Positions 1 through 24,005 of a stretch of 64,000 nt of DNA are shown here, piece by piece (the stretch's first letter is position 1; every line of letters begins with the position of its first letter). The notes beneath the pieces were generated by a model. The model saw nothing but the letters and a program-made list of their open reading frames with translations. It made no database searches and was not told where the DNA came from. A program made the translations under genes and the position numbers. This DNA is from Tribonema minus (taxonomy: Eukaryota > Sar > Xanthophyceae > Tribonematales > Tribonemataceae), in assembly GCA_017506865.1 (NCBI GenBank), contig JAFCMP010000545.1:372001-436000 (forward strand), read 5' to 3'.

Positions 1-348
1 CTGAACATGAGGAGCCAGAACGCATGCGCATACAGAGCCCGGAGACAGAAGGGGTACCAGCCCAATGGCCACACATTTTTGTCGGATGAAGATCATGCGG
101 AGACCGGACTCTGGCACGCACTGCATCAGACATTCAGCCAAGGCAGGGCATACGCATGGGGGCACCGGACGCTAGCTCCTCACAACATCTGTTGCGAGCA
201 TACGAAAAGGATAGATCAAAAGGCATGGCACACAAGCATCAAGAGGAGCAGCAGTGCCATGTAATTACATGGAACTCATGCCATCAGGCATCACGCTTCA
301 GCAAAAAAAATTGCTGCAAAGTACAGGGCGGGACACGCATATACTCAC

Positions 349-2298
349 CCCTTTGACCTCAAAAGGGCCCTGCACTGACACGGAGTCATGTACGCGCAGC
401 TTGGCGAGAGCCTCTGACATCTGCCCGCGGGGATACAGCCTGCGCAGCAGAACGGGGGCATCGAAGATGCAGTTAGATTATCAGGGCTTGGAAAAAAGAG
501 AAGGCATCATGACAACAACACCGTCAAGTCACTTGTTTCGCAAGCGAGCGCTGCTTGCGGCATGATGGAACTTGATTTGATGCGTTAGGCTTTGAGACGA
601 ATCTTTTCGTTGTGACTCATCATTCACCACTGAAATTTTTGGGCAGGATCAGCAATGGCTGAGTACGGGCACCTGCATAACATCAGACTCCACATGAAAG
701 TCTCAAGTTCACCGTACGATGAAATGGCCGACCATTGCCATGTTCACCTGATGTAGTACTCAATGCCCATTATGCCAGACCGGATTTCACGAAGTCCTAC
801 GGGCGTGTAGCTCCTCTGCAGCAAGGACAAGAGGCAGCAGCAGTCGCATGTTGAGTGTACACGCAGTGCCACGCGACAGTGACATGAGCACTAAGAAGAG
901 GAGCCAAGTGAGTGCGCTGGGAGACTTCGAGTACACGCCTTCAAAAAAAAAAAGTGGTTTGACATCTCAGCCCGAGATCTTCGATTGCATTGGGGTGGTT
1001 GCGGACGTGTCCTGCGCATTCAATAATGTACTAGTGCAGTCAGGGGTCTACTCAAACCAAAGTCTCACAAGCATCATACTGCAGTCAACAGACTCGAAGT
1101 GCAGTCAGGAGTCCGCTCAAACCTGGCCTGATTCACATGCAGTTCCACAGGATGTGGGGTCGCACTCAAACCGCAACAGTTGAAAGCCAGATCAAATATT
1201 GCGGAAAGCAGCAACAGTGCCTTGTGCACCAGTAGTGCTCAGTATTACAATGGGGTTACCTGCAGCACAACGCCATTGCAGACCACCCGAAACTTGTGGA
1301 AGCAGCCTGGCGTGAAAGCATTTGCCAGTTGCATTTGGTCCTGCACACACATAGCAGCAGCATGTCAGTGCTGGCAGGTGCACGTTCACATCACTGAGTG
1401 AAAATCTCAGTCAGAAAACGATAGCAGACTAGAGTCAGTCAAAGCAGGAATGCATTGACTATTCCTCATAAAGATGCAAAGCGGGGCCGGTTATGTGGCG
1501 CACTGGTTGCAGCAGGATGCCCATTATGAATCGAGCCCAATTTGAATTGCACAGCACAAGCGCAGTGGACAATGGTGAATAATTGTGTGCACCAAATGCC
1601 AATGTTCGGAGGCCGGCTGAAATCATTGCACAAACAGCGTCGCTTTCGGGCATCCCACCCTTCAGTAGTATGCTTGCACGTCAGTCATGAAGTAGCACAG
1701 TTCCCACATGACACAGAGCTCTTTGCAGCCTCTGGACTAATGCAACTCAGTGCAGCATTGCTATACATGCCCTGATAGTGCCATCAGACAGGTGATGGCA
1801 GATGTCATAGCCCGTGCTGAAGTAACAGAGGGATGTCCTGGCTCAGCATGCAGAGGCTCAACGCTTACCCCAAGGTTGGATAGTCTACAGTGTGTCTCCT
1901 CTTTTATCGGAACTGCCTTCTCAACGTACTCATGCAGATGCACCTCAAGGTTTGGTGCCAAGATAAAAGCAGATTACTCAAGCACAGATAACTTCATGGG
2001 ACATTCTTCAAGCTGCAGTGCATGTTGCAGCCTCAACTCCAAAGAGTATCCCCGTCTTCCGTTCTACTAGCAAGCAGTGTGGCGCCCAGTGCGGCCCAAA
2101 CCATTCTGAGTGCTATTTAAATCACCATTGAAAGAGCATGTACTCACACACATGCATCCAAGAAAGGCCAGGGGAAGCGTGATATGTGCACATGTCAACT
2201 TACCGCTGGCTCAAACAGGAAGCGCACTGTGAAGCCATTCCTGCTGCTGCCGCCCATCTTGTGCTTGCCCCTGATCCACGCATCAAGAGAACACAACG
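349..2298 (-). CDS. Flavin (cytochrome b5) reductase FAD-domain exons, partial
   Basis: Exon 439-349 (CTGCGCAG acceptor, GGGTGAGT donor) encodes 30 codons including LYPRGQMSEALAKLRVHDSV and VQGPFEVKG. This matches the family pattern K-x-Y-x-P-x-G-x-M-S ... L-x-x-G-D-x-V-x-V-x-G-P. Exon 2298-2204 encodes DAWIRGKHKM, then GFTVRFLFEPA, and may be the beginning of the reductase, though this assignment is weaker. The RxYT/S FAD motif and the NAD(P)H-binding half were not found and would need undetected exons or sequence left of base 1. Confidence 0.55.
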
Positions 2299-5200
2299 CT
2301 GCACTGACGTTTCTCGACAAAAGATGTGGGTCAGGCGGAGTTTATTCAGCCTTGACCAACCGAGGGCGCGCAAATGCAGCGTTGCAGCAATGCTGCAAGC
2401 AAAACCTGGTAAATATGAATGCTCGCATGCGCATGCGCATGCACATGTACAAAATGTAATGCACACATATGTCTTATGTCTTGTTTTGTCAAACTCAACA
2501 AACGCTGCTGCTCATGCATAGCTTGCGTCACGTCGTAATTCAGAGCAACAGCGAGGAAGAACAATGACAAATGCCCATGCTTAGAAGTTTCAATAAGATT
2601 TATCGGATTAGCGTTTGTGTGTCCCGCTCTTGTCATGGCACAAGCTCAGGTTCCCCTACACGGTGATCTGCGCTTTGTCGATTCTGCAACATGCCATTGA
2701 TTTATGAACATTCAATGAATAATTTCATTCCGCACCTGAGAGTGAACTTCATGAAAGGCTGCTGTGCCCCGCATCGCCTCTTTGAGTGGGCTGCACGCAT
2801 AGAAGGTGCAGCTGCGCAACCTGCGCTGTCCTCCTCATCACTGCAAAATGCACAGAGGGCAGACTCTGCAAATCAAGCTTTGAAACAGCAGTGCTCTCTG
2901 TTTCTTACAGCTGGCAAGGCCACACATTAATATGCCACGCATGACCACACCGAGCCGCAACTGTTACATACAAATTAGTCACTCGAAAGAGGGAAACCCC
3001 TGCTGCTCCTGTGAGTGCCAGCCATTTATGCCTAAAACACAGTTACAATTAGACTGATTGTGACGATGCTGAAGACTGCACACAGGCGGTTCTGTGTCAC
3101 CCGTTGCAGCAGCATCATAATGCAGTGTATATTTGCTGGGGCGAAAATTTCGACCTCAGCACGCCTCCTTGTGCCCAATCACTTAGCCCAGTATCCAGCG
3201 ACTACTCGTTGTGTACAAGTGGACAGATTGCAGAACACGAAGGTCAATGTTTATGTGCTTACGCCAGGCATTCCATGCAGTGCAGAGGAAGCGTAGGCCA
3301 GTCACTACATCAACAGTGTAATTAAAATTATGATGCGGCAACGGCGATGACGTCACAGCATGGTGCAGTCACCTGCTCCAATCTCATTATGGCACGAAGG
3401 TGTGAGGGGTGGTAATGAATTTGCGCGAGTGGCGGTACTTGCAGTGGTCAGTGATCTGCTGCAGCAATCGACAGGCTGTGAGAAGTGGCACACATCTGAT
3501 GGTGGCGTACCAGTTCATGTTTTGGCAACGTTGCTTACCTTGCGTCTCCAGAATCCACCTGCAGACAGGTCCAAACAGCAGGCCATTGCAGAAGTGTCAG
3601 AACCCAAGCAAGGGTGCAGCTGTTGGTAGGCTTTGAATAGGGGCATGACATGGTATTGCATTGATTGAGGCTGTGCACAACTTCTTGCAAACTTCACACA
3701 CCGAATACACAAGAGCAGCCTAAGGTTTAACATCACGAAACAGTCTGCAGAGTATGACTCTGGGAGTCTCCTTGGAGCGAGCTTCAGACATACCTACACA
3801 ACGCTAACAGCCACGCCCTTCAGTTGCTTCATAACGTAGACTCAAGCTTGCTTTGTGCAGCAACAGCAGGTCGGCAAATGAGTGGGTAGTGAGATGATCA
3901 CCGTGTGCAACAGGTTCACCACTTCTTTCAAGTTCTTAGAGCGGTGTGCAATGAAAGCTTGAGCAACGCATCGACCATACACTAAAAGGGCTTTGGTGCT
4001 GCAGGAGTTAGAAGTGCTACTCATGAACATCAATGTACGGTACTCGGTGTTGTGCTTACATATGCCACCACCAGTCTCTGGATAGCCGCCCAGGCCTTTG
4101 CACTGCACGGCAACGAGGCACAGTACCAGCAACAGCAATACAGCCATGTGAGGCGCACACTCATTATAGGGCACCAGCTGGCACAACAAGCAAGGGTTAG
4201 GGTTAGGGTTAAGCCTTACACTAAATATATGTCAAAGAGCAAAACGAGCAGTACATGTGTTTCTTATTCGTCTGCCCGGACGCTTTCTGCACGCGCCAAA
4301 ACAAGACGTGCATGTGGCACGCAAATACCCAGGGCCGCAGGCGGTCATTGGTGCGCAGGCTACTCATTTGCAGTCCCGTACAAATAATGCGATTGCGATT
4401 GGTGTCGCAATGCGCATGTGCCAGCCTTGCAGTTGCGCAGACTTCCAAGTATTATACCTCCGTATTGTACTTTATTTGCTTCCGCTTGAGCGGCGGAGAT
4501 CCTATGAAAAATACAAGATGTGCAGCTCTTGTACTCGTGTCAAGCGCGCTCACACGCGCATTTGTGAACGCAGCTGAACACAATCGCTACTTACAGTATT
4601 CAACGGTCACGGACCGCCAGGCCAACTTTGTTCGCCCCAGAACTACTTTATTGTACTTGCCTGTGTTTGTGGGTGCCGGTGAAGATGCCCTCTTCAGGGC
4701 CTTGAATGCCCAGCACCTCCTTGGTGACATCCCGACTGACAGACTCCTTCAAGAGCTGAATACGGTCGGAAGCGAGAGCAAAGGCAAATGGAGCAAGGAA
4801 CCGGCAAGGCGAATGGACATGAACCAGGGTACAATCACTTTTCATGCCTGGCTCCACAAGCCTGCCTCACGGGATATGGATTACAGTTAATTCATGAGAC
4901 CCACGGGCAAATGAACGGTGTACACAAATGTGATAGTCCCGGATTGAACCCTTGTTGTGATCCTGCTCCCAGTCCAAATGGACCAACGCACCAGTAGCAC
5001 AATTAAGAAGAACTGCAGCATGTCATTCTGGGTGCTTCTTAAGCTAGCTACTTCTTGGTCAAGTCATTCAAGAACTATGCGATGACTTCACATTGCCACA
5101 CATACTTGAAGTACATGTCGTGCGGTCATATGCGCACCAAAGTTCTTCAATGTGAAGTACCTTTGTGCACTCACCTTGGAGCCACCAGGATGCGCCTTCA

Positions 5201-8200
5201 TGTACTCCGAGACATCCAGTATTGCGTCATTCACAATCAGCAGTTGTTCACCCTGCACCAACAACGCAGGCACACACCACCGGTCGTCCGCAGACAACAA
5301 ATGTGCTTCAGCAGACAGCCAATGTGCTGCAGCAGACACCACATGTGATGTCACAACCAGGCTTTGGGCTGAGTTGAGAGGCTGTGGCTTCAGCATGCGC
5401 CGCAAGTGAAATTATCTCGTCGCTGCACTGCGCGCTTTCGTCCATGATCAAAAGATTAATATCATATTCTTCACAGTGGCTGTGTTGTTTCACTGTCTGC
5501 ATGGCGGTCATCTGACGCAAACGAGGCGATGCGCTGTTAATCAAGCTGATCTGGCAACTTCTTAAAAATGCTTATTTTAAGAATTCAATGTCTGTCTCCG
5601 ATTGTTAGAACAGTGCCAACAGAGGGTCTGTCTGTCACAACGTCCGGTGGACAAAATGGTTTCTCGACTTGCTTTGTCGCCTCAGCTCGTGTTGGTAACG
5701 TTCTTGCCATAAACAGCCTACACAAAGGCGGTAAAGGCAAATGCGGCGACAGGCCCTGATGTAGACTCGAACAGCACAATGATGTCATGCGTTTCAGCAC
5801 AAGCATCTTCTGCCAAGATTAGGACATTAGCAACGTTACGATAGGTTCAGTTCAGTTTGTACACATCAGACGTGAAGGTGTCAGGCAGAATCAGGTTGAA
5901 TGCGTCACCAGTTCGGCCGTTGATGCCGTGATCAATGCACAGAGAGCTTATTCCTGTGCGTAGAACGGGTACAGTGGAATTCCAACACGCCATACTTAGC
6001 ACTTGGTTCTGATCACAGCTAGTGTAATCTGGTTTGAATGTAGATGTTGAAAATTGCCAGTGCCACGGGGTCTTGTGAGGAAAGCTACAGTCCGTTGATG
6101 ATGCTTTATTCCTCGAGCTTGCAACTACGCAGCGGCAATGCCAAAAAGTGATGTCAAGTCCTTCCCGTTGCTGTGTATTTGCGTGCACCGCCCCGCCCCG
6201 ATTGTTCGAGCAGAAACGCCTCGCCTCAATCCTCTGCTCTCACGCCGATCATTAGCAAATTGAAGTCTCACCTGGCCCACACGCTCATTAAACTGTTCCA
6301 AAGTGAGTGAAGGTATCCCAAGCTGACGCCGCTTGGTCTTGCGCGCATGCCACCGGCCGTGCCACAGGTAGATCTCTGCTACGATGAACATTAGTGCCAT
6401 GAAGGCCAAGATGACCGAGAAGACGTATCGCATAACCACGTCGAAGCCCGCCAGCTGCAGCACAAGAGGGGTGCAAGAGGTGCAGTTGAAGATGAAGTTG
6501 GACCACAATGATCATGCCAGATGGCACAGATATGATGTACTTGCAGAAATCTGAATGTCCGGGCAAAGCATGTGAGAGGACGCATGGGGGCAACCGAACC
6601 ACCAGTGGTCCGAGTGTTTGCATGGCGTGAAGACCAGTCTTCAGACTGCAATGCGCAGAGGCTAAAGTATGACAAGGTACATTGCAAACTCAGGCCACAT
6701 AGGACAACAGGTCACACAGTTCTGGCCACTGCGTCGGATTTGAGCAGTGCTGTATGACGCCTTATACTCCCGCAAAGCGCGGTCACAAGCCTGCACTTGC
6801 GAGATCAAAGCACAGTAATGTCAACCCCTTGTGGCCATGCAGCAGCTGGCGAGCATTTCAGGTACTGCCCTGCAAGCGAGCACAAACTGACATTATAGTC
6901 TTTGATGCTTGCAACCCAGCAACAATGACATGTACAAAGGCAGCACCGTTGCCGGTGGATGCTTGAGAGTGCTCTGCCGTGCAACGCATGTAGCGATGCA
7001 GCCAGCACAGACATATAAGTTGTTGGTAGTACTATACAGACATCGCGGTTTGAACAATGCTCACCTGGAGGTTGAGGGCGTCTGAGTTATTGTTGTCCAG
7101 GGCCTGCAGTTGCACACCAAATTCAACAAGGCACGTTGTGATACTGGTTTACTGTGAAATAGCAGAGTCGCAGGTAATTCACAACTTCAACCTCCAACAT
7201 TCAGCAAGACTGTTGGTGGCCTAAGCGAGCGATTGAGAGCTTTGACATTCAGCCAGCAACACTGATCTTACTGTGTGCTTGTGCCTGTTGTGAACATCAA
7301 ACATCTCGTACATCAATGCACTTTTCTGCATAATTTACGGAATGGGTGTCAAGTATGGCAACCGGTTTACACTGAGTACAATGGCCTTGCCGTCAAATGC
7401 CTACCGTTGAGAGTCATCTACCATGCACCAGCAGCACGACTTGCAAAGCATACTGGGCGATGCGGCAGCAATGCGCAGCTTGGTGATGCTCACTATTGCA
7501 TCAGCTGGTGTAAGAGCACAATGACTACTGTACGCAAGCTGACTGACAACTACGCCCGTTTTGAAGCTGGACGTCAGTCGGTGTGTAGTCTACTATCCCG
7601 ATGCGAACTCAAAGCGCCCGCGCTGTTGTGGATTTGAGATCAAACTGAAGAATGCAGGCCAATGCAAATTTGAATGTCCTCTGCCAAATGAATGCACGCA
7701 CTACGATCGTGCAAGCAATGCTGCCCGCCTGTGAGTGCTGCAGGATTTGCATGATACATACCCCCAATTGGATGTTCTCGTCATTTGGCGAAATGATGGT
7801 GAGCCCAATGATGACGTTGAGGAGTCCTAGCGCCACTACCACTCGCCCGCTTAAGCGGTGAAACCACTTGTTCCACTGCGCAAACGAGCACATGGCGGGG
7901 GGGAAGGAGAGGGACACACAGCGATTTTTATATTGTGGATAAATCTGTAGTGAGATGCCAGTGAACATGGTGACACATGCTGCAGTATGCTCATTGGGTG
8001 GCGCAAAGAAATGACAATACGTTAGCTTGACGCAACGCGGCTTCAAGAGCTTTGGGATCGCTTGTTGTACAACGTGTGTGCATGTGGGTGAGTTGGGGGG
8101 TCCACAGTGGTGCTTGATGAGAGACAACAATAGGTAGTGAAAATAGGTAGTGTCAAAGGCGCAGCATACACCGGCATGATCTCCTCAGCGTGATGTGGCG

Positions 8201-11200
8201 GGAAGCCCAACTAAGGGAAACGCTGGTAGCGCCTGAACCTAACGGAATGTGATGGGACACTGCCCTCATTCTGCTCCCTCCGCAAACATGCAGTCAGGTG
8301 CCAAAGAACAAGTACCTAGCTACCCAATAGCAGTTAAAGTACACGCCAGTGCCTAGACTTCCATTACTTAAGTAGTTGTGTTCCACCTGCATGTCTGCGC
8401 CCAGCCTGCTTGTTTTCATGGACAGACGGTCGTGGGTTTCTGTCGCCACTCCTACAAACGTGCGTTGCACAATGAAGCTGTTTCATAAATCTTAAACGCC
8501 GAAGTACACAGCTACCTGATGCAGCCTGTCATAGTTCGTGCCCAGCCACCGGTTGCCGCGGTTTTGAATGCCCATGCTCCGCACTTTGCCAGAGGCGAAC
8601 TGTATGATGATGATCACAAACAGCGCAATGCCAATCTGGCCATGCACGGTGGCGAACTGCACAGGCGGCGGAGGCAGAAAGGCGCGCAAGCAAGCAAGCA
8701 AGTACACCAGTTTAGTGATAGAAATGGCCATCAAGTAGCAGCGCGTTTTTGATTAGCATGTAAGCACCAGGATTGTCCAGGAGTGTCCCCGTTGTCGTGC
8801 ATGACACATTGGAACAAGGGCCATGGGTACAAACATATCATGCTATTGAATGCGCTGCTGGCAGACAGGCTTGTTCAACAACAGCCAGAGCGCAGTCACT
8901 TAACAGGGCACAACAAGCAGTAGGCGATTCTGTTGCCTAGGATCCGAAGTGCTCGTCAAATCACACGCGCATGCTTCTTACCAGATTATTCGCTGATGCC
9001 ATGGCGGCGACAGCTATAGGGAGCGAGGCCTCCACAGCAAAGGCCATCAGGCCCTCGTGCACGTCCAACCAATACTTCCAGTGCTGCGTACAAGGTACAG
9101 AAGGCAACAAAGTTCATCGCATTTCTCCCTGTAGCTGCTGCTGGTGCGTGTGTGTGTGGCTTCTGAAATGAGACATTTCAGCCAACAATATTCGAAAAAC
9201 GTGGACCACCCTCACAGACTCAGTGATGCAGCCCACAATCTAGTGTAATGAGCCATACGCTTGCCTTATACCACCAGCACCAGCGCTTTGTGCATGTGTG
9301 TGCCAGCACTTCAACAGTCATGGAACCCAGCACAATGGACTTCAACTTGATGTTGCAAGCACTGAAAGTGCTCACCTTTTTGTAGCGCGCAATGTACACT
9401 GCTGCAGGTGCGCACATGCCCCATGCCAGCAGCATCACCGCGCCGTGCAGCGCAAAGAAGCCCTTCTGGGAGCTAGTCGGCTCGCTCTCTCCAGTGTAGA
9501 AGTTGACGATGTATATGCCTGCGAGGGCCGGAGCAGCGATAATTAGAAGTATACTTCAAGTATGACATGAAGTTGAGGTATGCGCTGATCAAGCTGAAGT
9601 TATTGCAGAGCAGATAGTCATGTTGAACATGTACATACCCGATTCATCAACCGCATTGACCCTCGTGAGCCATCATCGCGCGGATACTGCCGATGTTTCT
9701 GAAGCAGGGACCACACCTCAAGGTGAGCAAGTGTCTTTAAGCTGAGTTGAGGTCGAGGCATTTATATTGAAGTTTTCAAAGGCCTGCATAAAGCCTTTTC
9801 ATAAGACGGACAGTGCTTCGACGCATGTGGCATTCATATTGAGTGCTGTCAAACTACTGCATGCATGCAAGCATACGCACCTCTGTCATCGCCGCTGTGC
9901 TGCTCTGTGGCCTGCAGGTTCAAGCTCCAGATGATGCTCATCTGCTGTTTCAGGATCGGATAGTCGACGCCATCTCCAGGGTCCAGCGGCCGCTCGAGAA
10001 CAATGCACTGCAGGCACTCACAACACATTATTCTGAATGATACAATTGTTATGATGAAGTATCATGATGAAGTATTGCTACTGCAGTGCCACAGTCATAG
10101 TAGTACATCATGTCAGCCCCCCAAAAAGAGGGCACCGTGAGGAACACTGAAAAAAATGGGCCTTACACTGCTCTCAAGTCATGCACTCAGGCGCGCGCCT
10201 CTTGTGGGCTGGCGCACTTCTTATGTGCCACATGCTGCACCGAAAGAGCTGACCGTACCCAGCGTCAAAAGTTCTTGAAATGGCACAGCACAATGAAAAA
10301 CAACTTCAGTGTTGTCTACTTGTATCTTGAAAATTGCATACTTCGAAGTAGTAAAAGGCAGAAACATGTGTGCAGTGTCAGGAATATTGGGCGCTAACTT
10401 CAAGGTGCCTGTTCCCCCCTGCACTGGCAGAGCTAGATGACGCGGTGGTTCTGTAGACATGACATGAAACGCTCATGATGGGCATCACATGCCAGTAGTG
10501 TTGCAACACTGGCAAGTCTCGCATGTGCGTGAAACCACGTCACTACTTGGTAGTCCTGGCGATAATTTACATATTCCTCCTACGAGCAGTGCCGACCGCG
10601 GTGCACTTCTTACACCCTCAGCATCTCACCTTGGTTTCTGTTTTTTCCTCCGAGTTGCATCTGTAGGGGCGCTTGCTGATGAGTTTGACAGACTGTTTCT
10701 CGTCCGGTGGCGGCAGAATGTTGTCAGTTCCAGAGCGATCCAGCGTTGTATTCCTGACCTCACCCTCCTGCGCACGCGTACAGCAATGCTTGAGTCAGTG
10801 CTCAGCGGGTAAGACCGCAAGCGTCAACACCGTCAACAACTTTGAAATAACTAGAGATCGCAGCAGGAGCAGTTCTCTGTGGCAGCGAACTTCAAGTCAG
10901 CTGTACAGCGCAGTGCTTGGCATCTGCTGGCAAGGGCTTTAAAGAACAACAACAGCAGCTTGCAGAACAGGCTGGCATTCAATTGCTGGCGGGCTTCAAC
11001 TCTGCATGCAGAGGGTAGCAGCAGCAGCAGCAGCAGCAGCAGTCCCAACGCTATAACAGCAGTGCTCAACATATGTGGCTTGAGGCTCAGACAATCACTG
11101 GTAGCAGCGCTCAGAGCAGCAACTTTGTGTTATGTAGCTACGCAGCAGTGGCATCGATGAACATTGCAGCTGGCAGCTCAGTGAGGGCACGTTGCAGTGG

Positions 11201-12621: not shown

Positions 12622-12926
12622 CTGGAGCGCAATCATTGCAGTGGCGACGTGTAAGGAAGGGGGTGAGTCTGTGTTGAGGTGAGTGTAGCAGTGCAAATGC
12701 AGTGCACTATGCCTTTCGACTGGGTCTACGTTGAAAGTTCAACAGGCAGAGCAGCTCATCTTATTTTCCAGCTGATCATAACGTAATCAGCTGAAAATAA
12801 TGCAACCATGAAGGTGCGCACATCAGAGCAAGGTGACATGAAGGGCATCAACTCAACTGGTACACGTATGCACCACATTGAGCATATGTTAACACAAACA
12901 TTGTACAGATGGCAATAAGACTTACC

Positions 12927-13278
12927 GTCATAGGTACATTTGCAATGTGGCTTGCCGCCCTTATACTTAATAGCGATGCAGTAGCGAGCGAATTGCACGG
13001 ACTGCAGCTGTCTCATACTAACATATACGCAAGCGTTGAACCTGTACAGCAGTCAAATACAACAGCAACACTTCATGACCGTCACAACTGATGGACGATG
13101 CCAGTATGGCCAGTGCGTGGCGAGGCTGCGCCAGGTGACACTGCAGTCTGCCGGTAGGATGCTTGACAGTGCCACATAAAGGGCTTTGGCCAAATGTCAA
13201 CATAGGTGTTCGTACCTGTTGCGCTGCGCCAGGATGGAAAGCGTAGTTGTCCGAGAGTCCTCAATCACATTCTGTGGG
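12927..13278 (-). CDS. Candidate linker exons between the peroxidase and DOMON modules
   Basis: Two short open stretches have good splice signals. One, near 13278-13216, encodes NVIEDSRTTTLSILAQRN and ends at a GTACG donor. The other, near 13013-12927, encodes VQFARYCIAIKYKGGKPHCK, has a CTGCAG acceptor and ends at GTAAGT. They are in the right orientation to link the peroxidase to the DOMON, but the second does not join the 12621 exon in phase. Offered as possible exons only. Confidence 0.25.
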
Positions 13279-14157
13279 GCGCAGCAGGGTTACCAGCATC
13301 GGGTCCATCAGTAAGTAACGCTTGTGCCCCCGAAGCAAGTGCGAATGCCAGTGCAAGCAAGGTGCAGGTAAACCCAACACATACCACTACATAGCAAACT
13401 ATCCTCTACCGAAATTTGCTGTCAACATGCTGTGCGCTCGATATGTACCACACATAATGGTGTTGTGGTTCCTGGCAACAGCGCATTGACTCACGCATGG
13501 CGCGTTCATCATCTGCCAGGCCAGGTGGCAGCTGCCACATCCACCTCCTCGGGCTTGCTGTCATGGGATCTAAGTGCCCGCATGGCCACCACGACGCGTG
13601 CGGCGCAGTACATCATAGGCTACCCACCGCCGTTCGCAGTGCTGGTAGGACGTGCAGCCGTGTATGGCTCCCTACTGTGCCACACATTCTAAGTAGGCTA
13701 GCGCTACCGGGCGGCGCAACTCAAGTGCTGGAATTTGCCTGCCTGATGCCCCTAAAGTGTACAGGAAACATGAATTGCTCAAAGTCGGCTGATAGTCTGC
13801 ACATACATGGACAGCCTATAGATGTGCGCAGGCGGCACAAATGTGTAATAGAGGCCTATTGGCATGTCCGTGTCATGCTTACACCCGGGCTTGTCATGCC
13901 ACCTCCAAAGCGAAACAATGATGCGGCGATGGCTTGCACTTGGCTTACTTTCAATACTCCAGCGCATGAGCATGCGATGGCCAATTGTTCAGTGCTGTGC
14001 CACAGAAACCCTGACGCAGGAGGATGGGTCAGACACTTCATAGCACACATAGAAGTATGCATGTCCCGAACTGCAGGATATACAAAATGGAGTAAAAGTA
14101 AGGCTCCAGGTCCTACGCAGCACCCGAGGAGAGGTGGTTATACGGCAGTTCCGTACT

Positions 14158-14712
14158 TACGAAATGGCTGTGCCAGTGGGGGTCGACTCTCTTCAGTTTC
14201 TCCAGCTGCCTCTTCAGCACCGCTCTGAGGGCAGCAAGAAGGGCAGGACAAGAGGCACACGGTCACAATGATTCTTGAAAGTATGACAGAACAACAGCAG
14301 TGCCGCAGCTGTGGCCCTGCCTTTGTAGCAGGTGCCATAACCTCAGCCTAGTATGCACTGCGGCCAACAATGTTTTGAGCACCAGGAGATTCGTTTCGAG
14401 TGGCCGCTTCTGTTGCAAGCAGCAGCTTGGGAAGCAGAAGTGCGCACGGGAGACAGTGTTCATCTCAAAGCAGAGATGCGAGTATATAAAGTGCATGCGT
14501 CATGAAGCGGGTACCTTGAAGTACCATGAAAGTAGGACAGCAGAAGTGTTCACAGCAAGACCGAGGATGACACACACTGGAAAGGGGACCTCACGCATGT
14601 AAGTGATGAGCATGACTTCATACAGTGAAGACCAAAGAGGCCTGCAGCAGTGGTTTGTCAAATGGCGGCGAACTCGTTCCCGCGAGCAGCTTAAGGCTAT
14701 GTTTGCTGCCTG
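14158..14712 (-). CDS. Candidate transmembrane and juxtamembrane exons after the peroxidase
   Basis: The open frame 14712-14519 follows a CAG acceptor, ends at a TTCAAG/GTACCC donor and contains one clear hydrophobic helix. About 300 bases further, 14222-14158 (CCCTCAG acceptor, GTAAGT donor) encodes the charged VLKRQLEKLKRVDPHWHSHF. Together they could be a membrane anchor with a short basic tail at the end of the peroxidase, or a linker to the DOMON module. There is no homology evidence and phase continuity was not established. Confidence 0.3.
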
Positions 14713-17700
14713 CACTCCTCTGAAAGCCCCAGCACCCTAGCCGCACTCGAGACTTGCATGCGTGAGCTGTGGGCATGGTCACTCACTGCACATACCACAG
14801 TTAAGCATGTCTGACGAGCCAGTGACTACCGATAGTCCAGCAAATGTACAAAAAAGTGCGCAAGCATTCCCGTGACCCATTGTGCTGCGGCCCGCATATA
14901 CAGTGCAAATCAAGCACGAAGTTTCACAACGCACTTGTCATATGCGCCGTCGTGATTGCCCGGCAGTCCCGGAGGCCTGCATACACGAACAGCATATTTT
15001 ACTCACGTGAATAGGGGACCCAGGACTGATGGCCCTCGCGCCGCCTCTGCCAAGCCCCCACGCACAAAGTCCACGTTGCTCACGTCCCCCTCAAACATTC
15101 TGCTGAGCTGCACCGCATCGGGTCTGGAGATGTCAAAGAATGTGGCGGGGGCGGTGACGTTGGGGTAGAAGAACTCCCATGCTGCACGGTAACTGATCTG
15201 GCTGGCCACCTGCAGCGAGGGCCAGAGGTGTAGCACACATTGCACAGATGATGAGCATAACATGACAATTTCAGCTTTCATTGCAGTGAGTGCAAGTCCT
15301 ACATATCGTTCTGTGGCTGCTTAGGGTTTGGGGTCTAGGGTTACGGTTCGGGAATGACATGCCGCCGGCAAGAAATTTGCTCTGAATACATAGCATATGT
15401 ACTAATCACATATATGTATATACTACGATCTTGCGTCAGGAAACCTCAATGGTCCCAAAGGGTACAATGAATAGCTTGATCACGTGCGCATTGTTGGACT
15501 GTGAAGTGGTTTGCGTAGGCTGGATCACCGACTACGCGATGGTCATACATTTGTGCATACACAGGTCAACTGAGACGCAGTACCAGCTGTTGCAGGGCTC
15601 AGCACTTGCGGCAGCACTGAGTAACTGCTGCAGTGCTAAGCACTCGTTGCAGTTGTCCGCTGCTGTGACAGCGCTCAGGAGTACTGTACCCTCAGTAGCA
15701 TTGACTAAGCATGCTGTCTGCAGCTAACTGCCTTCATCCACGTGTACGACTTAAGCGAACGCTGCTGTTGTACAGTGCTCAGAAAGTGCTGCACCGTATC
15801 CATGTTCAGCAGTAGTTAGATTCTCCGCAGGTACTGCACTGAGGACCGCCGCCAGAGTATGCACCTCAACAACAGCCCTGGCGCGGAACTTCTTGCAGTC
15901 GACTGACGCAGCAGCCGCACAGATCGCCAGGACTCTCTTAGGCTAGTGGACTTGTTCCCGGTTCAGCATCGTGCGGCGGTGTCTCAGCATGCGGACATGA
16001 ATTGGCTTGGAGCATAAATGGTGGCCCGGAGCTTGTCGCCTTCCTCAATTGCAACATCTCCTATGCCTGCATGGCAGCTGTGCTGAAAGGAGTGGCCGAC
16101 GCCTGCGGGTCCATAGAGCTGGCAAAGAATAGCCTGATGTGGCTGGTCGTGTACAAATACAGCACTGAGGCCATGTGAGTGCCTGTGATCTGCAGATGCT
16201 TGCGCACCCGGTCTGTCCTGTTATGAGGTGGTTCAACAAGTTGTGCGCCCAGGTGGTCAATGCAACGCATTTCGACCTGTACGACAATCAATGCAACGCA
16301 TTTCGACCCGTACGACAATCGTACAATTGTACAGGTTGAAATGCGTTGCATTGACCACCTGGGCGGACAATCGTACAGGTCGAAATGCGTTGCATTGACG
16401 ACCTGGGCGCACAGGTCGAAATGCGTTGCATTGACCACCTGGGCGCACAAAGTCGACTCGGATATCATGCGTGTTGTGGCAATGATTCATTCCCCTCATC
16501 TCTTGATGGATGATGGTACTTCTACATCAAATGCATGTGGGCACCAAAACCATCAATCAATGAGGGGAACATGCCCTCTGTGCTGTTCTTGTACACAGCC
16601 AGCCATCGAAGGCCATTATTCGCCAGCTATACGAACCTGCAGGCATCGGCTACGCCTTTTGATACAGCTCTCATGCAGGCATAGGAGCCATTGCAGTACA
16701 GGAAGCCGGCAACCAGGCCACCATCCATGCTTTCAAGCCAATGCACGTCCGCATGCTGAGACACCGCCACGCGACGCTGAGCGGGGAACAAGTCCACTCG
16801 TGAATCCCAGTGGTGTGCGGCTGCGTCAGGCGACTGCAAGAAGTGAAGCGCGCCCGAGGTGTGGTCCACGTGCATGCTCTGGCGGTGATCCTCAGTGCTA
16901 GGCACGCGGGGGGACCTAACGGATGCTGATTATAATTCAGAACCCGCCGCTGGGCCCTGAACCTTGCCCTAACCCTCGTTAAGCACGCTCGTATGCGCGC
17001 GCCGTTGATTCTAACTCCAACTCACATTCAGCGTGTGCACGCGCATCTCAACTCGCCACAACTCTCTTGTTGAGTGCGCGCATGCGTGCATTGCGGTTGC
17101 AAATGCTGAATCAAGATTTGCAAACATCATCAGTCACACGCTCTCTGGTCGCACACTCTGCACATCGTCTCATCTCAATCCTGATCCTCGTTCAGCGCGC
17201 GCGCATGCGAGTGGTGATGAGCTTGACCCTAGGGCTAACCCTCATTGAGCGCGCATGCGTCACGCAGCATGAGCGCTGAAGTACTGGTTGTCAAATTGCG
17301 CAATTATGAAACCCCTCTCTGCGACACAGGCTCTAGCGCATGCACGCCAGCTACTTTTTACTCTTCATTTTTTAGTTACTTTGTTCTTTGCTGTTGCGCC
17401 TTCACCACACGCAGCTGCATTGACCAAGCTGCCAATGGTGGCGATAGAGCTTCTAAGGTCCGAAGCCACCGATGCGAATGCCGTGGCACTCTTTTGCAGC
17501 GCCAACAAGGGCAACAAGGAGGCATTCGTGCAGCTATACCACGCTGGCACTTATGCTAGAATCAGCATCTCTGTGCGCTCAAGCAAGGACGGAGCGCCTC
17601 CCAACACCCCGTGCTGGTGGACGAGTGGGGCCGCGTGCGCTGATGTTGAGCACTGTGGCCTGACATGTCAGATGATGACAGCTCATGTGCTGGTGAATGA

Positions 17701-20700
17701 GTACTGCACCGACCTTGCCACTCGCCTGCAGCAACACGCGATAGAGACGCTTTTGGCGCTGTCGGGCATCCGGGAGCAAGTGCTGTTCAGCACGAGTGAC
17801 GAGGAGACCGCGCATATAGCCAGGCGGAAGGCTTCGCAGGCGGAGCGACTTGCACGCAACTGCGGAGGAAGCAATGGCGCCTCCCGCCCCCCAAAGCTCC
17901 GGATGGGGAGGGAGTCTGTGGCGGTGTCTCCTGGCGGCAAAAAGCCACTCACCAGCCCCACAGCAGTACTGCACAAGCATCTGCGTCGTACTGGTCAATA
18001 TACGCCGCCACAACCTCTCTGGAGACTTGGGGGGGGGCGCCATTGCCTGCTCCGCACATATGCGCACAAGTCGATCCCCCTGCGCGGCCTTCCGCCTTGC
18101 CATGTGCGCTCTTTTTTCCTCATTCCTGCTGAAGAGGACCTGCTTCTGGAAGCCGGACAGCGCAAAACGCGTCTCTATCGCATGCTGCTGCAGGCGAGCG
18201 GCACAGTTGGCGCAAACATGTACTCGTCCACCAGCACATGTGCTGTCACCGCCAGACACTGTCAGCTGAGGACGCAGTGCTCAACGTCAGCGCACGCGTC
18301 CCTTCACTCCGAGCACCAACCCTGCATACAGCACACAAGGCCCTCACCTCTTTCTGCAAGCGCATTTGACACACAGCGGCGCACAGTGCGTAGCTCAGGC
18401 CCAGAGGCACCCTTGGCACAGCGCAAATACGAGCACTGCGCGAGGTGAGTCAACACTCAGGCCTACAAACTGGCTGAGAAGCCCGGAACAGCAGCTCACT
18501 CACCTGCACGTCCGCCGTCAGCGGAGCGATGCCACAGTCCCCAGTGCTCAGCCCCGGAGGCAGCCGCAGGTCCACCGCCCCCGCATCCGCCAGCATCATG
18601 CCGCGCAGCAGGGGGTCGATGCCGCCGCCAATGTCACTGCTCAGCTGCCTCAGCGCTGCGCCACCGCACACGGAGCCCACCTGGAGCAGATCTACGGAGG
18701 GCATGGAGCCCCAAGCAGCGCTCAGCACCCTGTCCACAGGGCTCAGCGCTGTGTGAGGCCAGCCCATTGCGACCGCTGCCAGGAGGTCGATGGTGGGGTC
18801 TTCGGGGGGGTCGAGGGCGGCGTCGAAGCCGCTGAGCGCTGGCGCGGAGGAGGGCAGGCCCAGCAGGGTAGGTATGTATTGGTTGAGGGTGATGTGCTGA
18901 GCCGCGGAGATGGTCCACGCGCGCGCCATCTGGTACAACTTATCGTCGGCGCTCCACTGCACGCAGCGACGGCAGGGCAGCGACGCGCATTTACACAGCA
19001 GAGTAGTGAGGAACGCTGGAAAACGCAGTTTGTATGTGGGAGTGAGGTGTACACATGTGATGATTGTGGTCATCCCGCCAGGAGTATCCAGTAGGCACTG
19101 TGGCGCGTTGTAGTAATTGATTCAGGCATGCGTGCCATCTAGTCATCTGAGTGTACAAAGAGGAGGGCAGTGGCAGCATGGCCACTAATGCAGGCATCGG
19201 CGATGGCTTCGTGACAAATGACCAAAGCATATCATGTAGCACGTAGCACGTGAACTGACAAAGTATGAAGACAGTGGTCAGGCGCAAACGTATGCACACA
19301 AAATATGGTGGTCATTGGGACCTAAATAAAGTTCAGCAAACTGCAGATGACTCAGTAAACTGCATCAGTCCTCCTGTGAAAGTGTTACACGCTGTGAAGA
19401 GCCTCGTAAAGCAGGCACTATTGCGGCTCTTTTACCATGAACCCCAAGTGCATCAGCAGTTGAAGTACAACTTCTTCAGTGCCCCTCCACACATAGCTCG
19501 GCAAAGCGCTGTTGGGTCTGAGCACACACACTGCAAGAAAGTTCAACCAGCAGCCACGGTCTACCGTTGAAAACATGAAGCTGGGGGCAATCACATGGTC
19601 CGCGCCCGCTGATGCAGCCGTTGGGCCGCACCTACTAGTACCCTACAATGAGCCCGCCATAAGTCACTGCGTTCAAGGGCCAACTTACAGAAAAGCTTGT
19701 TCACAGATTTGCTCACCGCTTGCCCCAGGCCACACGGCCCCTCGGGGTCATAGACGACGTCGCAGTGCTTGCACTGGTAGTCCTTCTCCGTTGCGCCACG
19801 GCACGCGCTGTCGTCGCACCCCTGCTCCCACAGGTGATCCACGTACTGCGTGTGCGTGCTGTTCAGCCACGGCGGCGGCGCCGCGGTGAGGTTGGCGGCG
19901 CGCCGGTTGTGCTCGCGCAGCAGCAGCGCCGTGAGCGTGAAGGTCCCCGGCAGCTGAGCGTTGCGCTGATCTGCCACCAGAAACTGCCGGGTGGTGACGT
20001 TCCACACGGGGAGGCCGGCGTCCGACAGGCGCATGGCGCCGCCGACGCCCGTGCGCAGCGACGTGTCGTTCGCATCGCGGCCGTAGATGCTGTGGCAGGT
20101 GTCAGCGTGTAGGGCAAGGGCTGCTGTCAGGGTGCCCGTCAACCATGTGTTTGCTGAACTGCCAGCAGCAGCTGCTGGGCGGCTGCAGCGCTGTAATCAA
20201 GAAGGCCGGCATCCGACAGGTACATGGTACGGCATGCTGATGATGCGCTTGGGAATCTGTTGTTTTGTGGCTTGCCTGTTGATGCTGTTGCAACCGTCAA
20301 AAGTAGCGCCAGATCTGAGTCACTGTCTGGGCAAGAGCGCTGGCTGACGTGCGTGGCAGCTGAGAGCTTATGATCTGCCATCATGTACTGCCGCAAAGCA
20401 GCATGCCGTAAACCGCAACGGGCGGGTGCACGATAGGCATATGGCACGGCCGACGCGCGTGCACAAATGAAAGGCTGATGTCGTCCTGCCTGCCGCTGCA
20501 AGGGCCAGGGTCAAGGCTAGATGCAGGCAAGGTCACCCAAAAATTGGTGGCGAGGGGTGCCACAAGCGCAGCAATTAGGACATACAAGGGTATTTGAGGA
20601 AAGTTTCAAAAAGAACTGGGCATAGTGGGCCAGGGGGTAAGGGCAAGAGACTCTAAAAGGCGTGCAATCCGCTGTTGGTGAGTGGAAACCGCGGCAACGC

Positions 20701-23700
20701 GTTCGGGGACAATCATTGCCCGCGGGTGCTTGGCAGTCGACGTGACAGGGTGGCACAGGATAATGTTCATGGTTACCTGTCCAGGTCATGAAAGGAAGTA
20801 GCACTGTTATTCACACTTTGCACAGCTGCAGCCAGCTGTTCCTCGCTGCATGCCTGTCACGGCCAGCATGAAATGATAAAGCGAGGAGGACATCAGTATT
20901 CACCGTCGCGTTGGCAATCCTGAATGAGCACTGGCTTCACATGAGGTGCATCATCACAACTGCTTTGAGTGCTTGCTTGCACTGCAACTTTTGCAGTCCT
21001 GTGTTCATCCTATGCAGTCACCATTTGATGCTGCTGCGTGGACCCCCTGCTCGGGCTGCAAGCATACACACTCCTCATGCAAGCAATTATCATAAGCAGC
21101 GAGTACCGCAGTTTCAGCTCCTGTATTATGTACTTGCGTTGGGTCTATCGCAGCAAACCAAACTGCAAATCCAAATTGCGAGTCCCAGATGCAACTGCCT
21201 GTATCATGCAAGCACCCCAGCTGGTCAGGTGATGAAACAATGGCGTAGTAAGCCTAATAAGTGACACTGTCACAATCACTTGAAGTATTATTACTCGGCG
21301 GGGGACATCTGATTCCAAGTACACCTACATGACGACGCCTACACACAAGACTTGCGGTTCAAATCGCATTGGGCAACGTTGATTGCAATGCAGCTAGCTG
21401 TAAAGCCTTCTTGGCGCATTGCCTGCGGCCTTAGCCTCTCGCAAACATCAGATCCTGATTGAGCGGTGCAAGCACTCACACACCAGCAAGACAGACTTGC
21501 AGGCACCGTGTGAGGCTTGTGCTCTCAAATCTGCACATGCATCTTGTAAGCAATTAGGGCAGCTACCCGCACTGCCTTGCAAATAAGCTCGTGCAGAGTT
21601 GCTGCGCTACACAGTGGGGTATGCTTGTGTACTTGTCGTACATGCTCACCCCCGTGCACAAGTCCGCCAGCGGTTCAGTGTCCACCACATCATGGTACAG
21701 CAGGAGCCCCCAGTACACCATGGCCTGCACAAGCAGTGAGGGATCGGCGACAGTTGCGGCACCAGCTGAGAAGACCGAGATATCAGCTAAATCCACTGGG
21801 ACGCGTTGATGCAACCCGCCTGATGATGTTTGCATCATACGACTAAGTGCTTACAGTCAACTGGTTGAGATCATATAATAGAGACAGGGGGAATGCACAT
21901 AGGGTAAGGGTTAGTGTTACCACCCAACTACTCCGCAGCAGTTGATTTCACACTGACTGATGTGTTTTGGTTTTTTCAATGAAGACGATGTCCAATTGAC
22001 CTGGCCAGAAGCCAAATGCTTTGACGTACGGATACAGCTACAAAATCGGTCATAATGTTGTAACGCCCTGTTGCAAACAGGTGATATCAGCACAGCATCT
22101 GCACAAGAAGCAAGGTACTTGTATGGACAACACCTTGTCGCAACAGCACAGCTATGCGACCGTGGTGCCCTTTAAGAGCTCAATCTGGCCGTGTTGCCAG
22201 GGGTTTAGATTCAGCGGCTGCATTCAGTGTCTGGCTGTGCACGTATTCACAAGTATCATGAAGCCCTGCATGCCTAGATCAATCGGTACAGGTATGTCCA
22301 GACGAATCGCGATCATGAAGAAAGCTGAAGGCAGTCACGGTGGTGACCTGCAGCGATGAGCGATGACGAGCAGTTGTAGTTTGCTCTCAAGAGCAAGTCG
22401 ATACAGTTGCATAACGTTAGATCATGTGTTGCTGCACTGGCTCATGTCATCATCACAGCATCTAACGTGAAGAGCTGTACTCAGGCAGCCAGGCTGCCAT
22501 GCGTTAAGTAGCTTTTTGGTTAGAGCGCGCTTGGCATATGCACAAGTGTAGCACCTGCCTTGGCAGACTGGTCTAAAAGCCATTTTGTAAGGCAGAAGCC
22601 TCAGCTAAGGCTGAGTTTACTTGAAAAGTGCTGAAGGTCATGCTGCATACGTCATGTACATACTTCCATTTACCTGATTACATATTTCCATTTACCTGAT
22701 TGATGCCTCTGTCGCTTAAATGAGACTGAGGTTGGTCGCCTGGATCCAATATCCACATTGACTGCACAATAGTGGCGGACAGGCGACCATGATGAGCACA
22801 AGTTAGTTCAGCTTTGGCACGGTAGCGTTTCAACTGTAACGTGCCAATGCCAAAGACCACATGCAGTATGAAACACTTCCACAATTGGCCACAGTAAAAT
22901 GCCATTTGCATCAGCATGCTCATGGCATGCACCTATGACATTGTAAACCACATCTCCATTACCACTTAAACAATGCGGCTGCGTTACAGTAGCAGGTGCA
23001 TGTATGGAACCAAACTACTTCCGAAGTATAGCTTCAAGAAGTTCGTGAGTGCATCAGGACCTGGTGCTCCCCTCAGAACTCAATCTGCTATTCTTGTTAC
23101 ATTTACACTGTCATAACACTAGCCGACGCTGTCAGGCTGGCTGACGCACTGCAACACATGACGCACACATTCGATGATGTGCGTGCCATGAAGTGCTGGT
23201 GGAGCGCACGTACATGAGCACAAGTTAGAAGGTACATGGCATTTATGCATATGCGCAGTGAGAGGAAGACCGTCCAAGGGGAAGGCATGCCGGTGGCAGC
23301 ACCAGTGTCACCAGATGAGCAAGTTGCCACTCAAAACGCTCAATCGTGCTTGCAAGTGGGTAGCAATAGCATACTAGTACATGTTTTGATGAGGCAGAAA
23401 AGCGCACACACACTGCAGGTATCTCAACTGTGCTGCCTGTGCTGTCCGTCTCAAATGTGTGTGCACTCACGAGCATGCTAGCTGCAACAAACAGGCACTG
23501 AGTCTGACAATGTAATGGATGATGATCGGATCAGACGCTTGCCTCTTTCTGGTTGTCTTTTAAAAATTAGAGAATTGTTGAAGTTTTGTTCGGGTCGCAG
23601 GCGTTCTGCCTGCTGGGCTGAGCCGTCCGCCTATTTGAGGTCAGAAATTTGCGAGAATACAGCCACTAATAACCGGCTAACACACACACATCACACTGCC

Positions 23701-24005
23701 GCTGGCAGCAACTTCGTGAGACCGAGACTGTGACTCGCCTTAATTCAGAAGAGAAAGTGTGTGTACTGTACCTGCTGTTGCCTCGGAAGCACACCATCGC
23801 CAGCAGCGAGTATTCTGGTGGCGTTGACTGAACCATAGGAGCTCCCGCTCGCCCCCAGATCGCCCACGTTTGGTGGCACGAGTCCCTTTCCATCCATTAC
23901 GTAAGGCCTCAGCCTGGTGAAGGCACCTGAGCAGGCGGCCTGTGTCGCTGCAGCCATCGCCGCACTGACGTGAGAGAGTAGTAGCAGGAGTCCGGCGAGC
24001 AACAT
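14519..24005 (-). CDS. Secreted animal-type haem peroxidase (multi-exon), possibly fused to the downstream b561 module
   Basis: The start is ATG at 24005, with a signal peptide of about 18 residues (MLLAGLLLLLSHVSAAMA). Recognised exons are 24005-23772, about 21772-21650, about 20119-19717, 18956-18504 and 15209-15007. Visible peroxidase landmarks, in order: the distal-haem motif WGLLLYHDVVDT; SIYGRDANDTSLRTG; LLLREHNRRAANL; LYQMARAWTISAAQHIT with YIPTLLG; a proximal-histidine candidate in MGWPHTALSP; GGIDPLLRGMM; and near the end SNVDFVRGGLAE. The family uses H2O2 to oxidise halides or phenolic substrates outside the cell. I did not find the usual RGRDHG exon between 18504 and 15209, nor the GDRFWYE segment after 15007. 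The 3.2-kb intron there is filled with inverted repeats. A possible transmembrane exon follows at 14712-14519 (CVILGLAVNTSAVLLSWYF). Either exons are missed or diverged, or the enzyme is degenerate at its C-terminal third. Recognition of the family is firm; the gene end is not. Confidence 0.78.
15840..16905. repeat. Inverted duplication with coding-like arms in the peroxidase intron
   Basis: About 330 bp at 15840-16170 reappears in reverse complement at 16905-16575. Shared words include GTGGACTTGTTCCC, GGCGGTGTCTCAGCATGCGGAC, CCTATGCCTGCATG and GTGTACAA. The minus-strand arm is the more open one; it encodes DLFPAQRRVAVSQHADVHWL, then YACMRAVSKGVADAC and WLAVYKNSTEGM. The plus-strand arm gives YACMAAVLKGVADACGSIEL and WLVVYKYSTEAM. 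I do not recognise the protein. The arms flank the foldback at 16241-16450. Confidence 0.7.
16241..16450. repeat. Foldback element with perfect 40-bp ends and internal copies
   Basis: The first 40 bases, starting TTGTGCGCCCAGGTGGTC, are repeated exactly in reverse complement at 16411-16450. Inside are further copies of the core CAATGCAACGCATTTCGACC, two forward and three reversed in total, so the 210-bp segment can form several alternative hairpins. It has no coding content. Confidence 0.85.
17640..18275. repeat. Second inverted duplication with coding-like arms
   Basis: The plus-strand arm (about 17650-17985) encodes RLQQHAIETLLALSGIREQ, then AHIARRKASQAERLARNCGG. The minus-strand arm (about 18270-17990) encodes RLQQHAIETRFALSGFQKQ, then AHMARRKAAQGDRLVRICAE. 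The two arms are clearly homologous but diverged, and lie nearly head to head. The family is not recognised. They lie in the same intron as the 15.8-16.9 kb inverted repeat, so this 3.2-kb intron contains little besides nested palindromes. Confidence 0.7.
20200..20245 (-). repeat. Partial copy of the peroxidase REHNR exon
   Basis: On the minus strand this stretch reads MYLSDAGLLDY, matching MRLSDAGLPVW inside the functional exon about 200 bases further along (20119-19717). It is a fragment of that exon left in the upstream intron. Confidence 0.55.

What the first reader, a model, noticed from the sequence alone, without database searches (positions are those of the whole stretch)
349..24005. 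Peroxidase, DOMON, b561, b5 and flavin reductase modules in one same-strand locus
Seen: recognisable exons for all five redox modules lie in order on one strand, with many phase-compatible junctions and no obvious start exon or signal peptide between the peroxidase and the DOMON. Known: b561 cores move electrons across membranes, DOMON domains accept them outside, and b5 with b5 reductase is a standard NADH-driven pair. Inference: either one giant chimeric protein or two co-located genes that feed cytosolic electrons to an extracellular haem peroxidase. This would be similar in logic to dual oxidases but non-homologous. I do not know of a described protein with this architecture.
Basis: partly seen in the sequence, partly recalled or inferred. 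Interest (0 to 1): 0.88.

Follow-up and report, generated by a model that had tools for sequence, protein, structure and literature searches.

The report
Peroxidase fused to membrane electron relay
A yellow-green alga encodes one large membrane protein that seems able to carry electrons from cell fuel (NADH or NADPH) across the membrane to an outside domain built like a peroxidase enzyme, a layout resembling animal dual oxidases but with a different membrane engine.

Summary
The window is from Tribonema minus. One minus-strand gene runs from window 24005 past the window edge to contig C542:367931. My 30 exons join into one frame of 1700 residues plus stop: peroxidase, DOMON, b561-like core, cytochrome b5, b5-reductase.

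That this is one protein rather than neighbours rests on four lines. A deposited model of this locus spans peroxidase to reductase (P0001). Three more loci keep the order on one strand. A Trinity-derived protein, P0003, crosses the peroxidase-DOMON joint. A metagenomic relative, P0007, fits its 1419 residues on a 4,625-base contig.

Ligand residues for the DOMON, b561 and b5 haems were invariant in 4 of 4 aligned copies, so an NAD(P)H-to-outside conduit is likely. The peroxidase is the weak point: this copy and P0007 keep distal and proximal histidines, but five of seven copies readable at the proximal site have Tyr, Cys or Trp, recalling haem-free human DUOX1. I found no description of this architecture in the listings searched. 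Acceptor and activity are untested.

The parts
23772..24005 (-). exon 1: start codon at 24005, signal-peptide-like segment (MLLAGLLLLLSHVSAAMA...), N-terminal peroxidase region
   Evidence: open frame and GT donor; hydrophobic stretch 1-21; not in deposited model P0001; joined in phase to next exon, but an exon between may be missing
21633..21724 (-). exon 2: distal histidine motif YWGLLLYHD of the peroxidase
19717..20089 (-). exon 3: peroxidase, distal Arg motif ADQR and LLREHNRR
18504..18956 (-). exon 4: peroxidase, proximal histidine motif GWPHT
15007..15209 (-). exon 6: peroxidase (VDFVRGGLAE...)
14161..14224 (-). exon 7: peroxidase
13216..13271 (-). exon 8: last peroxidase exon (NVIEDSRTTTLSILAQRN)
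   Evidence: counterpart in three other loci; joins 12621 in phase, as in P0001
12429..12621 (-). exon 10: linker between peroxidase and DOMON
   Evidence: P0003 has a linker exon at this place in C479
11650..11799 (-). exon 11: DOMON with ligand Met (GDRMRGADI)
10630..10767 (-). exon 12: DOMON
9881..10007 (-). exon 13: DOMON end with ligand His (EQHSG)
9376..9518 (-). exon 14: b561-like core, first His (ALHGAV)
8982..9083 (-). exon 15: b561-like core, second His (DVHEGL); absent from P0001
8516..8656 (-). exon 16: b561-like core, third His (TVHGQ)
7762..7875 (-). exon 17: b561-like core, fourth His (WFHRL)
7065..7103 (-). exon 18: short loop exon
6272..6454 (-). exon 19: last membrane helix and start of cytochrome b5 in one exon
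5175..5252 (-). exon 20: cytochrome b5, first ligand His (HPGG)
4661..4755 (-). exon 21: cytochrome b5, second ligand His (HKHS); GC donor
4060..4102 (-). exon 21b: end of b5 (AKAWAAIQRLVVAY); absent from P0001
   Evidence: found from P0002
3539..3558 (-). exon 21c: short linker; in P0001
   Evidence: accepted no counterpart in the other three loci
2736..2840 (-). exon 22: linker and start of reductase; absent from P0001
   Evidence: similar stretch in P0002
2204..2270 (-). exon 23: FAD-binding domain
1260..1340 (-). exon 24: FAD-binding domain; absent from P0001
748..815 (-). exon 25: FAD motif RSYTPV
349..439 (-). exon 26: GQMS motif; the gene goes on beyond window base 1 (four exons in L004, minus strand: 9713-9573, 8788-8573, 8126-7978, 7074-5931 with stop)

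Best explanation
This is one gene for one membrane protein of about 1700 residues, a member of an apparently undescribed family. Outside the membrane lie an animal-type peroxidase domain and a haem-binding DOMON domain; then a b561-like helical core with two haem sites; then, in the cytosol, cytochrome b5 and an FAD/NAD(P)H reductase of the cytochrome-b5-reductase type. Most likely mechanism: NAD(P)H reduces FAD, FAD reduces the b5 haem, electrons cross through the two b561 haems to the DOMON haem, and from there go to an outside acceptor (O2, H2O2 or ferric iron). The peroxidase domain either uses peroxide formed at the site or, where it has lost haem ligands, serves as a scaffold as in human DUOX1. 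Shown by sequence: gene structure, one frame, domain order, conservation of ligands. Inferred: topology, haem content, direction of flow, acceptor, peroxidase activity.
Against: No transcript for this very locus was available, and P0003 itself begins inside the peroxidase, so no transcript seen here shows the whole peroxidase. b561 is below the Pfam cut-off wherever listed and unlisted elsewhere. Proximal His replaced in five of seven copies (Tyr in C63/P0004, P0003 and C335; Cys in C479; Trp in P0005), and distal His replaced by Tyr in C479 and C63. In this copy the distal Gln and the Asp/Glu positions that bind haem covalently in myeloperoxidase (recalled) are Leu, Tyr and Gln. N-terminus not fully resolved; of five proteins scanned only the window model showed an N-terminal hydrophobic stretch (P0001 and P0007 start inside the peroxidase). 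The DOMON has the highest dN/dS of the four parts (0.37). The fold model has mean pLDDT 52.8, so no haem-haem distances were taken from it. The sequon excess that would fit an outside N-terminus is seen in this copy and P0004 but not in P0002, P0003, P0005, P0006 or P0007.
Confidence: 0.72

Rival explanations
1. Two neighbouring genes: a secreted peroxidase and, downstream, a DOMON-b561-b5-reductase gene.
For: Animal-type peroxidases and DOMON-b561 proteins each exist alone; the joint lies in a 0.6-kb gap (13216 to 12621) with another open stretch (13041-12926) in it; P0002 and P0006 have little or no peroxidase in their deposited models.
Against: P0003 crosses the joint in one transcript-derived protein; P0005 and P0007 are single predicted proteins; P0002 still begins inside the peroxidase; the window and three more loci keep the same order; exon 13216 to 12621 is in phase.
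Confidence: 0.05
2. DUOX-like oxidase: the relay reduces O2 outside to superoxide/H2O2 and the peroxidase domain is a structural remnant without haem.
For: Loss of proximal His in five of seven copies; human DUOX1 lacks the haem-ligand His and shows no haem in its peroxidase-homology domain (passages of PMC7794343); the peroxidase has a higher dN/dS than b561 (0.23 against 0.04).
Against: This copy and P0007 keep both His and the Arg; in HYP1 the haems are modelled with His/His and Met/His ligands and the acceptors reported in the passages read are ferricyanide, ferric chelates and cupric ions (PMC10784544), not O2.
Confidence: 0.35
3. NAD(P)H-driven ferric or cupric reductase: a CYBDOM whose usual ascorbate donor has been replaced by a built-in b5/b5-reductase, the peroxidase serving mainly as a metal- or substrate-binding cap.
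For: DOMON-b561 proteins HYP1 and CRR act in iron reduction or homeostasis (HYP1 passages; CRR only the start of its abstract); relay ligands conserved in 4 of 4.
Against: Does not explain purifying selection on the peroxidase or its intact form in P0007; no iron data here.
Confidence: 0.3

Closest known systems
CYBDOM proteins (DOMON plus cytochrome b561; Arabidopsis HYP1 and CRR, insect CG8399, human SDR2, also called FRRS1 by recall)
   Same: Outside DOMON with Met and His, then b561 core with four His; electrons from cytosol to outside
   Different: Here an N-terminal peroxidase and a C-terminal b5 plus FAD/NAD(P)H reductase are fused on; HYP1 takes electrons from cytosolic ascorbate (PMC10784544 passages)
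Dual oxidases (DUOX)
   Same: N-terminal peroxidase domain of the same superfamily, membrane haems, C-terminal FAD/NAD(P)H reductase, and loss of peroxidase haem ligands in several members
   Different: Membrane core is b561-like, not a ferric reductase/NOX domain; DOMON and b5 added; no EF-hand family listed
Cytochrome b5 reductases and Ncb5or (CYB5R4)
   Different: Tethered to a membrane core and outside domains; no CS family listed in the Pfam scans
Ferric reductase (FRE) proteins with DOMON domains in Naegleria and oomycetes (PMC3591440 passages)
   Same: DOMON outside, membrane haems, flavin reductase inside
   Different: Ferric reductase core rather than b561; no peroxidase reported for that subfamily in the passages read
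Peroxinectin A, lactoperoxidase and myeloperoxidase
   Same: Peroxidase domain homologous
   Different: Stand-alone enzymes, not fused to an electron relay (recalled)

Membership tests
CYBDOM | DOMON domain over curated cut-off | tested here: met
   46.7 bits, cut-off 32.7
CYBDOM | Met and His haem ligands in the DOMON | tested here: met
   M39 and H133 of A1, invariant in 4 of 4; rule from PMC10691727 passages
CYBDOM | b561 core recognised by curated profile | tested here: inconclusive
   Cytochrom_B561 10.7 bits against 23 in the window protein, best 22.5 in P0006; four His and 4-5 hydrophobic stretches present
CYBDOM | cytosolic ascorbate as donor | not testable with these tools
   needs biochemistry
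Dual oxidase | N-terminal animal-type peroxidase domain | tested here: met
   92.2 bits, cut-off 25
Dual oxidase | ferric reductase/NOX transmembrane core | tested here: not met
   no Ferric_reduct hit in the window protein at E up to 1; a sub-threshold 15.5-bit hit in P0006
Dual oxidase | EF-hand domains | tested here: not met
   no EF-hand family listed
Catalytic animal haem peroxidase | distal His, distal Arg, proximal His | tested here: met
   YHD, ADQR, WPHT in the window copy; proximal His not met in five other copies
Catalytic animal haem peroxidase | Asp and Glu that bind haem covalently in vertebrate enzymes (recalled) | tested here: not met
   Tyr before the distal His and Gln three after the Arg in the window copy
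Cytochrome b5 reductase | FAD motif RxYT, GxMS, GGTGxTP and b5R fold | tested here: met
   motifs; fold tested on relative P0006, not on the window protein
Ncb5or (CYB5R4) | CS domain between b5 and b5R | tested here: inconclusive
   no CS family listed; 6mv1 and 6mv2 align over their residues 241-520

The most novel reading that the evidence does not exclude
A self-powered transmembrane peroxidase: the DOMON haem hands electrons from cytosolic NAD(P)H straight to a tethered peroxidase haem, so that outside H2O2 is reduced (or substrates are radicalised) without a soluble donor. This would be a solution parallel to DUOX on a b561 engine, arisen early in ochrophytes or before, with repeated loss of the peroxidase haem in paralogues just as in human DUOX1.
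Probability: 0.2. Interest if true: 0.85.

Novelty: new variant of a known kind. Interest (0 to 1): 0.7.

Why it matters
It would be a second, independently built way to wire cytosolic NAD(P)H to an extracellular peroxidase domain, showing that the DUOX plan can be reached from a b561/DOMON chassis. It also gives b561-type electron bridges a built-in flavin donor in place of ascorbate, and offers natural variants with and without peroxidase haem ligands to ask what such a domain does when it no longer binds haem.

Tried and rejected
Dropped exons: 18435-18348 and 13041-12926 were in my first model, broke the reading phase and are not needed; exons 2 and 3 were re-cut to the edges seen in P0001. 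P0001 uses other small exons between 18504 and 15209; I did not adopt them because the direct joint is in phase and fits the motif in the paralogues. An open stretch at window 1-150 (CVPESGL...) was taken for reductase at first reading and dropped when the next exon was found in L004.

N-terminus: tblastx between loci showed N-terminal peroxidase exons in C479 and C63, also in P0004, without clear counterparts for all of them here; left open.

Exon-by-exon tblastn also listed one weak out-of-order hit in C479 (E 0.44 and 0.66), taken as chance. Spliced search in paralogues: of 28 template exons per locus, none was accepted for exons 10, 12, 15, 21c, 24 and 28 in C479; for 2, 10, 12, 21c, 24 and 28 in C63; and for 2, 4, 10, 12, 21c, 25 and 28 in C335. 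The 3' end of exon 4 in C479 and the 5' ends of exon 3 in C479 and C63 are unsafe and were trimmed for dN/dS, as was exon 6 (untrimmed peroxidase 0.29).

Distribution: the three protein searches each scored only the 7,984 to 7,995 candidates sharing most words, so species without hits are not shown to lack the protein. The organisms behind P0003, P0005 and P0007 were not given. Sixteen genome-search runs did not complete, so the number of peroxidase genes in the genome and the place of P0002 are unknown.

Structure: the P0006 model is weak overall; the rows shown by Foldseek and VIA are filled by the reductase domain, with no b561 or DOMON entry among the 50 shown in each.

Sequons: excess N-glycosylation motifs before the membrane core in this copy (9 against 3.3 expected; 0.4% of shuffles reach it) and in P0004 (9 against 4.7; 2.6%), not in P0002, P0003, P0005, P0006 or P0007; not used as support.

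Rfam: 0 matches in window, L004, L005 and L006.

Literature (PMC open licences only): searches found 120, 52, 28 and 140 papers and listed the top 20, 15, 15 and 15; from titles and abstract beginnings none describes a peroxidase-DOMON-b561-b5-reductase protein. Searches were on Tribonema, Chrysoparadoxa and DUOX. I read passages of six papers and no whole paper. Subscription papers, including the 2007 DOMON survey, were not seen.

Full report
Identity. A protein search with the first spliced model returned P0001, a hypothetical protein JKP88DRAFT_283324 of Tribonema minus on a 618,947-base contig, the same length as own-genome contig C542 that holds the window. Tribonema minus is a xanthophyte stramenopile.

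Gene structure. Reading the minus strand, I listed exons by homology and splice sites. After removal of two exons that broke phase, re-cutting of exons 2 and 3, and addition of two exons found from the paralogue P0002, 30 exons give 5,103 bases, 1,700 residues and one terminal stop. The last four exons lie outside the window in L004, the stop ending at C542:367931. One of these four (exon 28, 216 bases) has no support beyond its open frame and is absent from P0001. The last membrane helix and the start of b5 share exon 6454-6272, so these two cannot be separate genes. The peroxidase-DOMON joint 13216 to 12621 is in phase. The first exon carries a hydrophobic signal-like stretch; the N-termini of P0004 and P0005 suggest that some N-terminal exon is still missing here.

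One protein, not neighbours. (a) P0001 is a single deposited model. (b) Exon-by-exon tblastn found the same order on one strand at C479, C63 and C335, and a spliced scan found counterparts for 22, 22 and 21 of 28 template exons there; the scan imposed the window's phases. The deposited P0004 (1786 aa, contig length 361,213 as C63) carries peroxidase, DOMON, b5 and FAD families. (c) P0002 begins inside the last part of the peroxidase and continues into DOMON. (d) P0003 is a Trinity-named protein of 1623 aa given as complete; it maps in order to C479 over 29 HSPs at 76-100% identity and crosses peroxidase, linker and DOMON exons without a break; it begins inside the peroxidase. (e) P0005 (1633 aa, metagenome) and P0007 (1419 aa on a 4,625-base contig, so nearly the whole contig is coding) have the same order. 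P0006 from Chrysoparadoxa australica has DOMON to reductase; its model starts inside the DOMON. In all, 5 of 7 database proteins carry a peroxidase match over Pfam's cut-off; P0002 has a short piece by BLASTP and P0006 none.

Electron relay. Ligand Met and His of the DOMON, four His of b561, both His of b5, and the FAD and NAD(P)H motifs are invariant in 4 of 4 aligned Tribonema copies (window, P0002, C63, C335; C479 was not in that alignment). Over the seven database proteins the DOMON Met, three b561 His and both b5 His are invariant; the DOMON His and the second b561 His fall in exons missing from the P0004 and P0001 models. In Arabidopsis HYP1 the DOMON and b561 haems are proposed to form a conduit from cytosolic ascorbate to outside ferric iron (passages of PMC10784544), and Met plus His mark haem-binding DOMONs (passages of PMC10691727). 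Adding b5 and b5-reductase supplies a NAD(P)H donor. This is inference from family knowledge; nothing here measures activity.

Peroxidase domain. The window copy keeps a distal His-Asp (YHD), the distal Arg (ADQR) and a proximal His (WPHT). Proximal position across seven copies with data: His in the window copy and P0007; Tyr in C63/P0004, P0003 and C335; Cys in C479; Trp in P0005. Distal position across six: His in the window copy, C335, P0005 and P0007; Tyr in C479 and C63. P0007 matches lactoperoxidase at 5.7e-100, Peroxinectin A at 2.6e-79 and Dual oxidase 1 at 3e-58. Human DUOX1 lacks the ligand His and shows no haem in this domain (passages of PMC7794343). So the fusion probably began with a working peroxidase, kept in P0007 and perhaps here and degenerate in others (inference), while the domain stays under purifying selection (dN/dS 0.23 over 367 codons, C479 against C63; b561 0.04 over 212, b5 plus reductase 0.12 over 222, DOMON 0.37 over 95).

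What is known. None of the papers listed by four full-text searches of an open-licence library describes this architecture, judging by titles and abstract beginnings and passages of six papers (passages 34, 35, 61, 77, 78, 84). The parts are known; the combination seems new. I therefore file it as a new variant of b561/DOMON electron bridges, working like a dual oxidase in layout but failing DUOX membership on its membrane core.

Limits. No transcript for this locus, three word-limited protein searches, no organism names for P0003, P0005 and P0007, and 16 unanswered genome searches.

Noticed in passing
window 56437-61794, minus strand: A 1785-aa open frame with reverse-transcriptase-like stretches (e.g. 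QRGFKQGDPAAPMLFCG) and low-complexity parts; looks like a retroelement (motif recalled, not scanned).
   Followed up: no
window 41016-41513, plus strand: Open frame resembling a Na+/H+ exchanger segment (GYMFAFVAMLYVIRAALVALSWPLLSRGEYGLTPKQGVVLVHSGLRGALSLILAL), by eye only.
   Followed up: no
window 15836-16898 and 17628-18302: Two nested sets of long imperfect inverted repeats inside the 3.3-kb intron between exons 18504 and 15209, like foldback elements.
   Followed up: partly
window 4661: A GC-AG intron donor (CAG|GCAAGT) at the second b5 ligand exon; GC donors also appear at some exon ends picked by the scan in C479, C63 and C335.
   Followed up: partly
L004, minus strand from about 3940 downwards: The next gene on the same strand seems to begin with a signal-peptide-like MRPRGMLLACLGVSSLPRGAYA (read by eye) and to have several long open exons; not identified.
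   Followed up: no
P0001, P0002, P0004 (deposited models): Deposited models differ from mine: P0001 lacks window exons 24005-23772, 9083-8982, 4102-4060, 2840-2736 and 1340-1260 and L004 exon 8788-8573; P0004 skips the last peroxidase exons; P0002 starts late and repeats a segment.
   Followed up: partly
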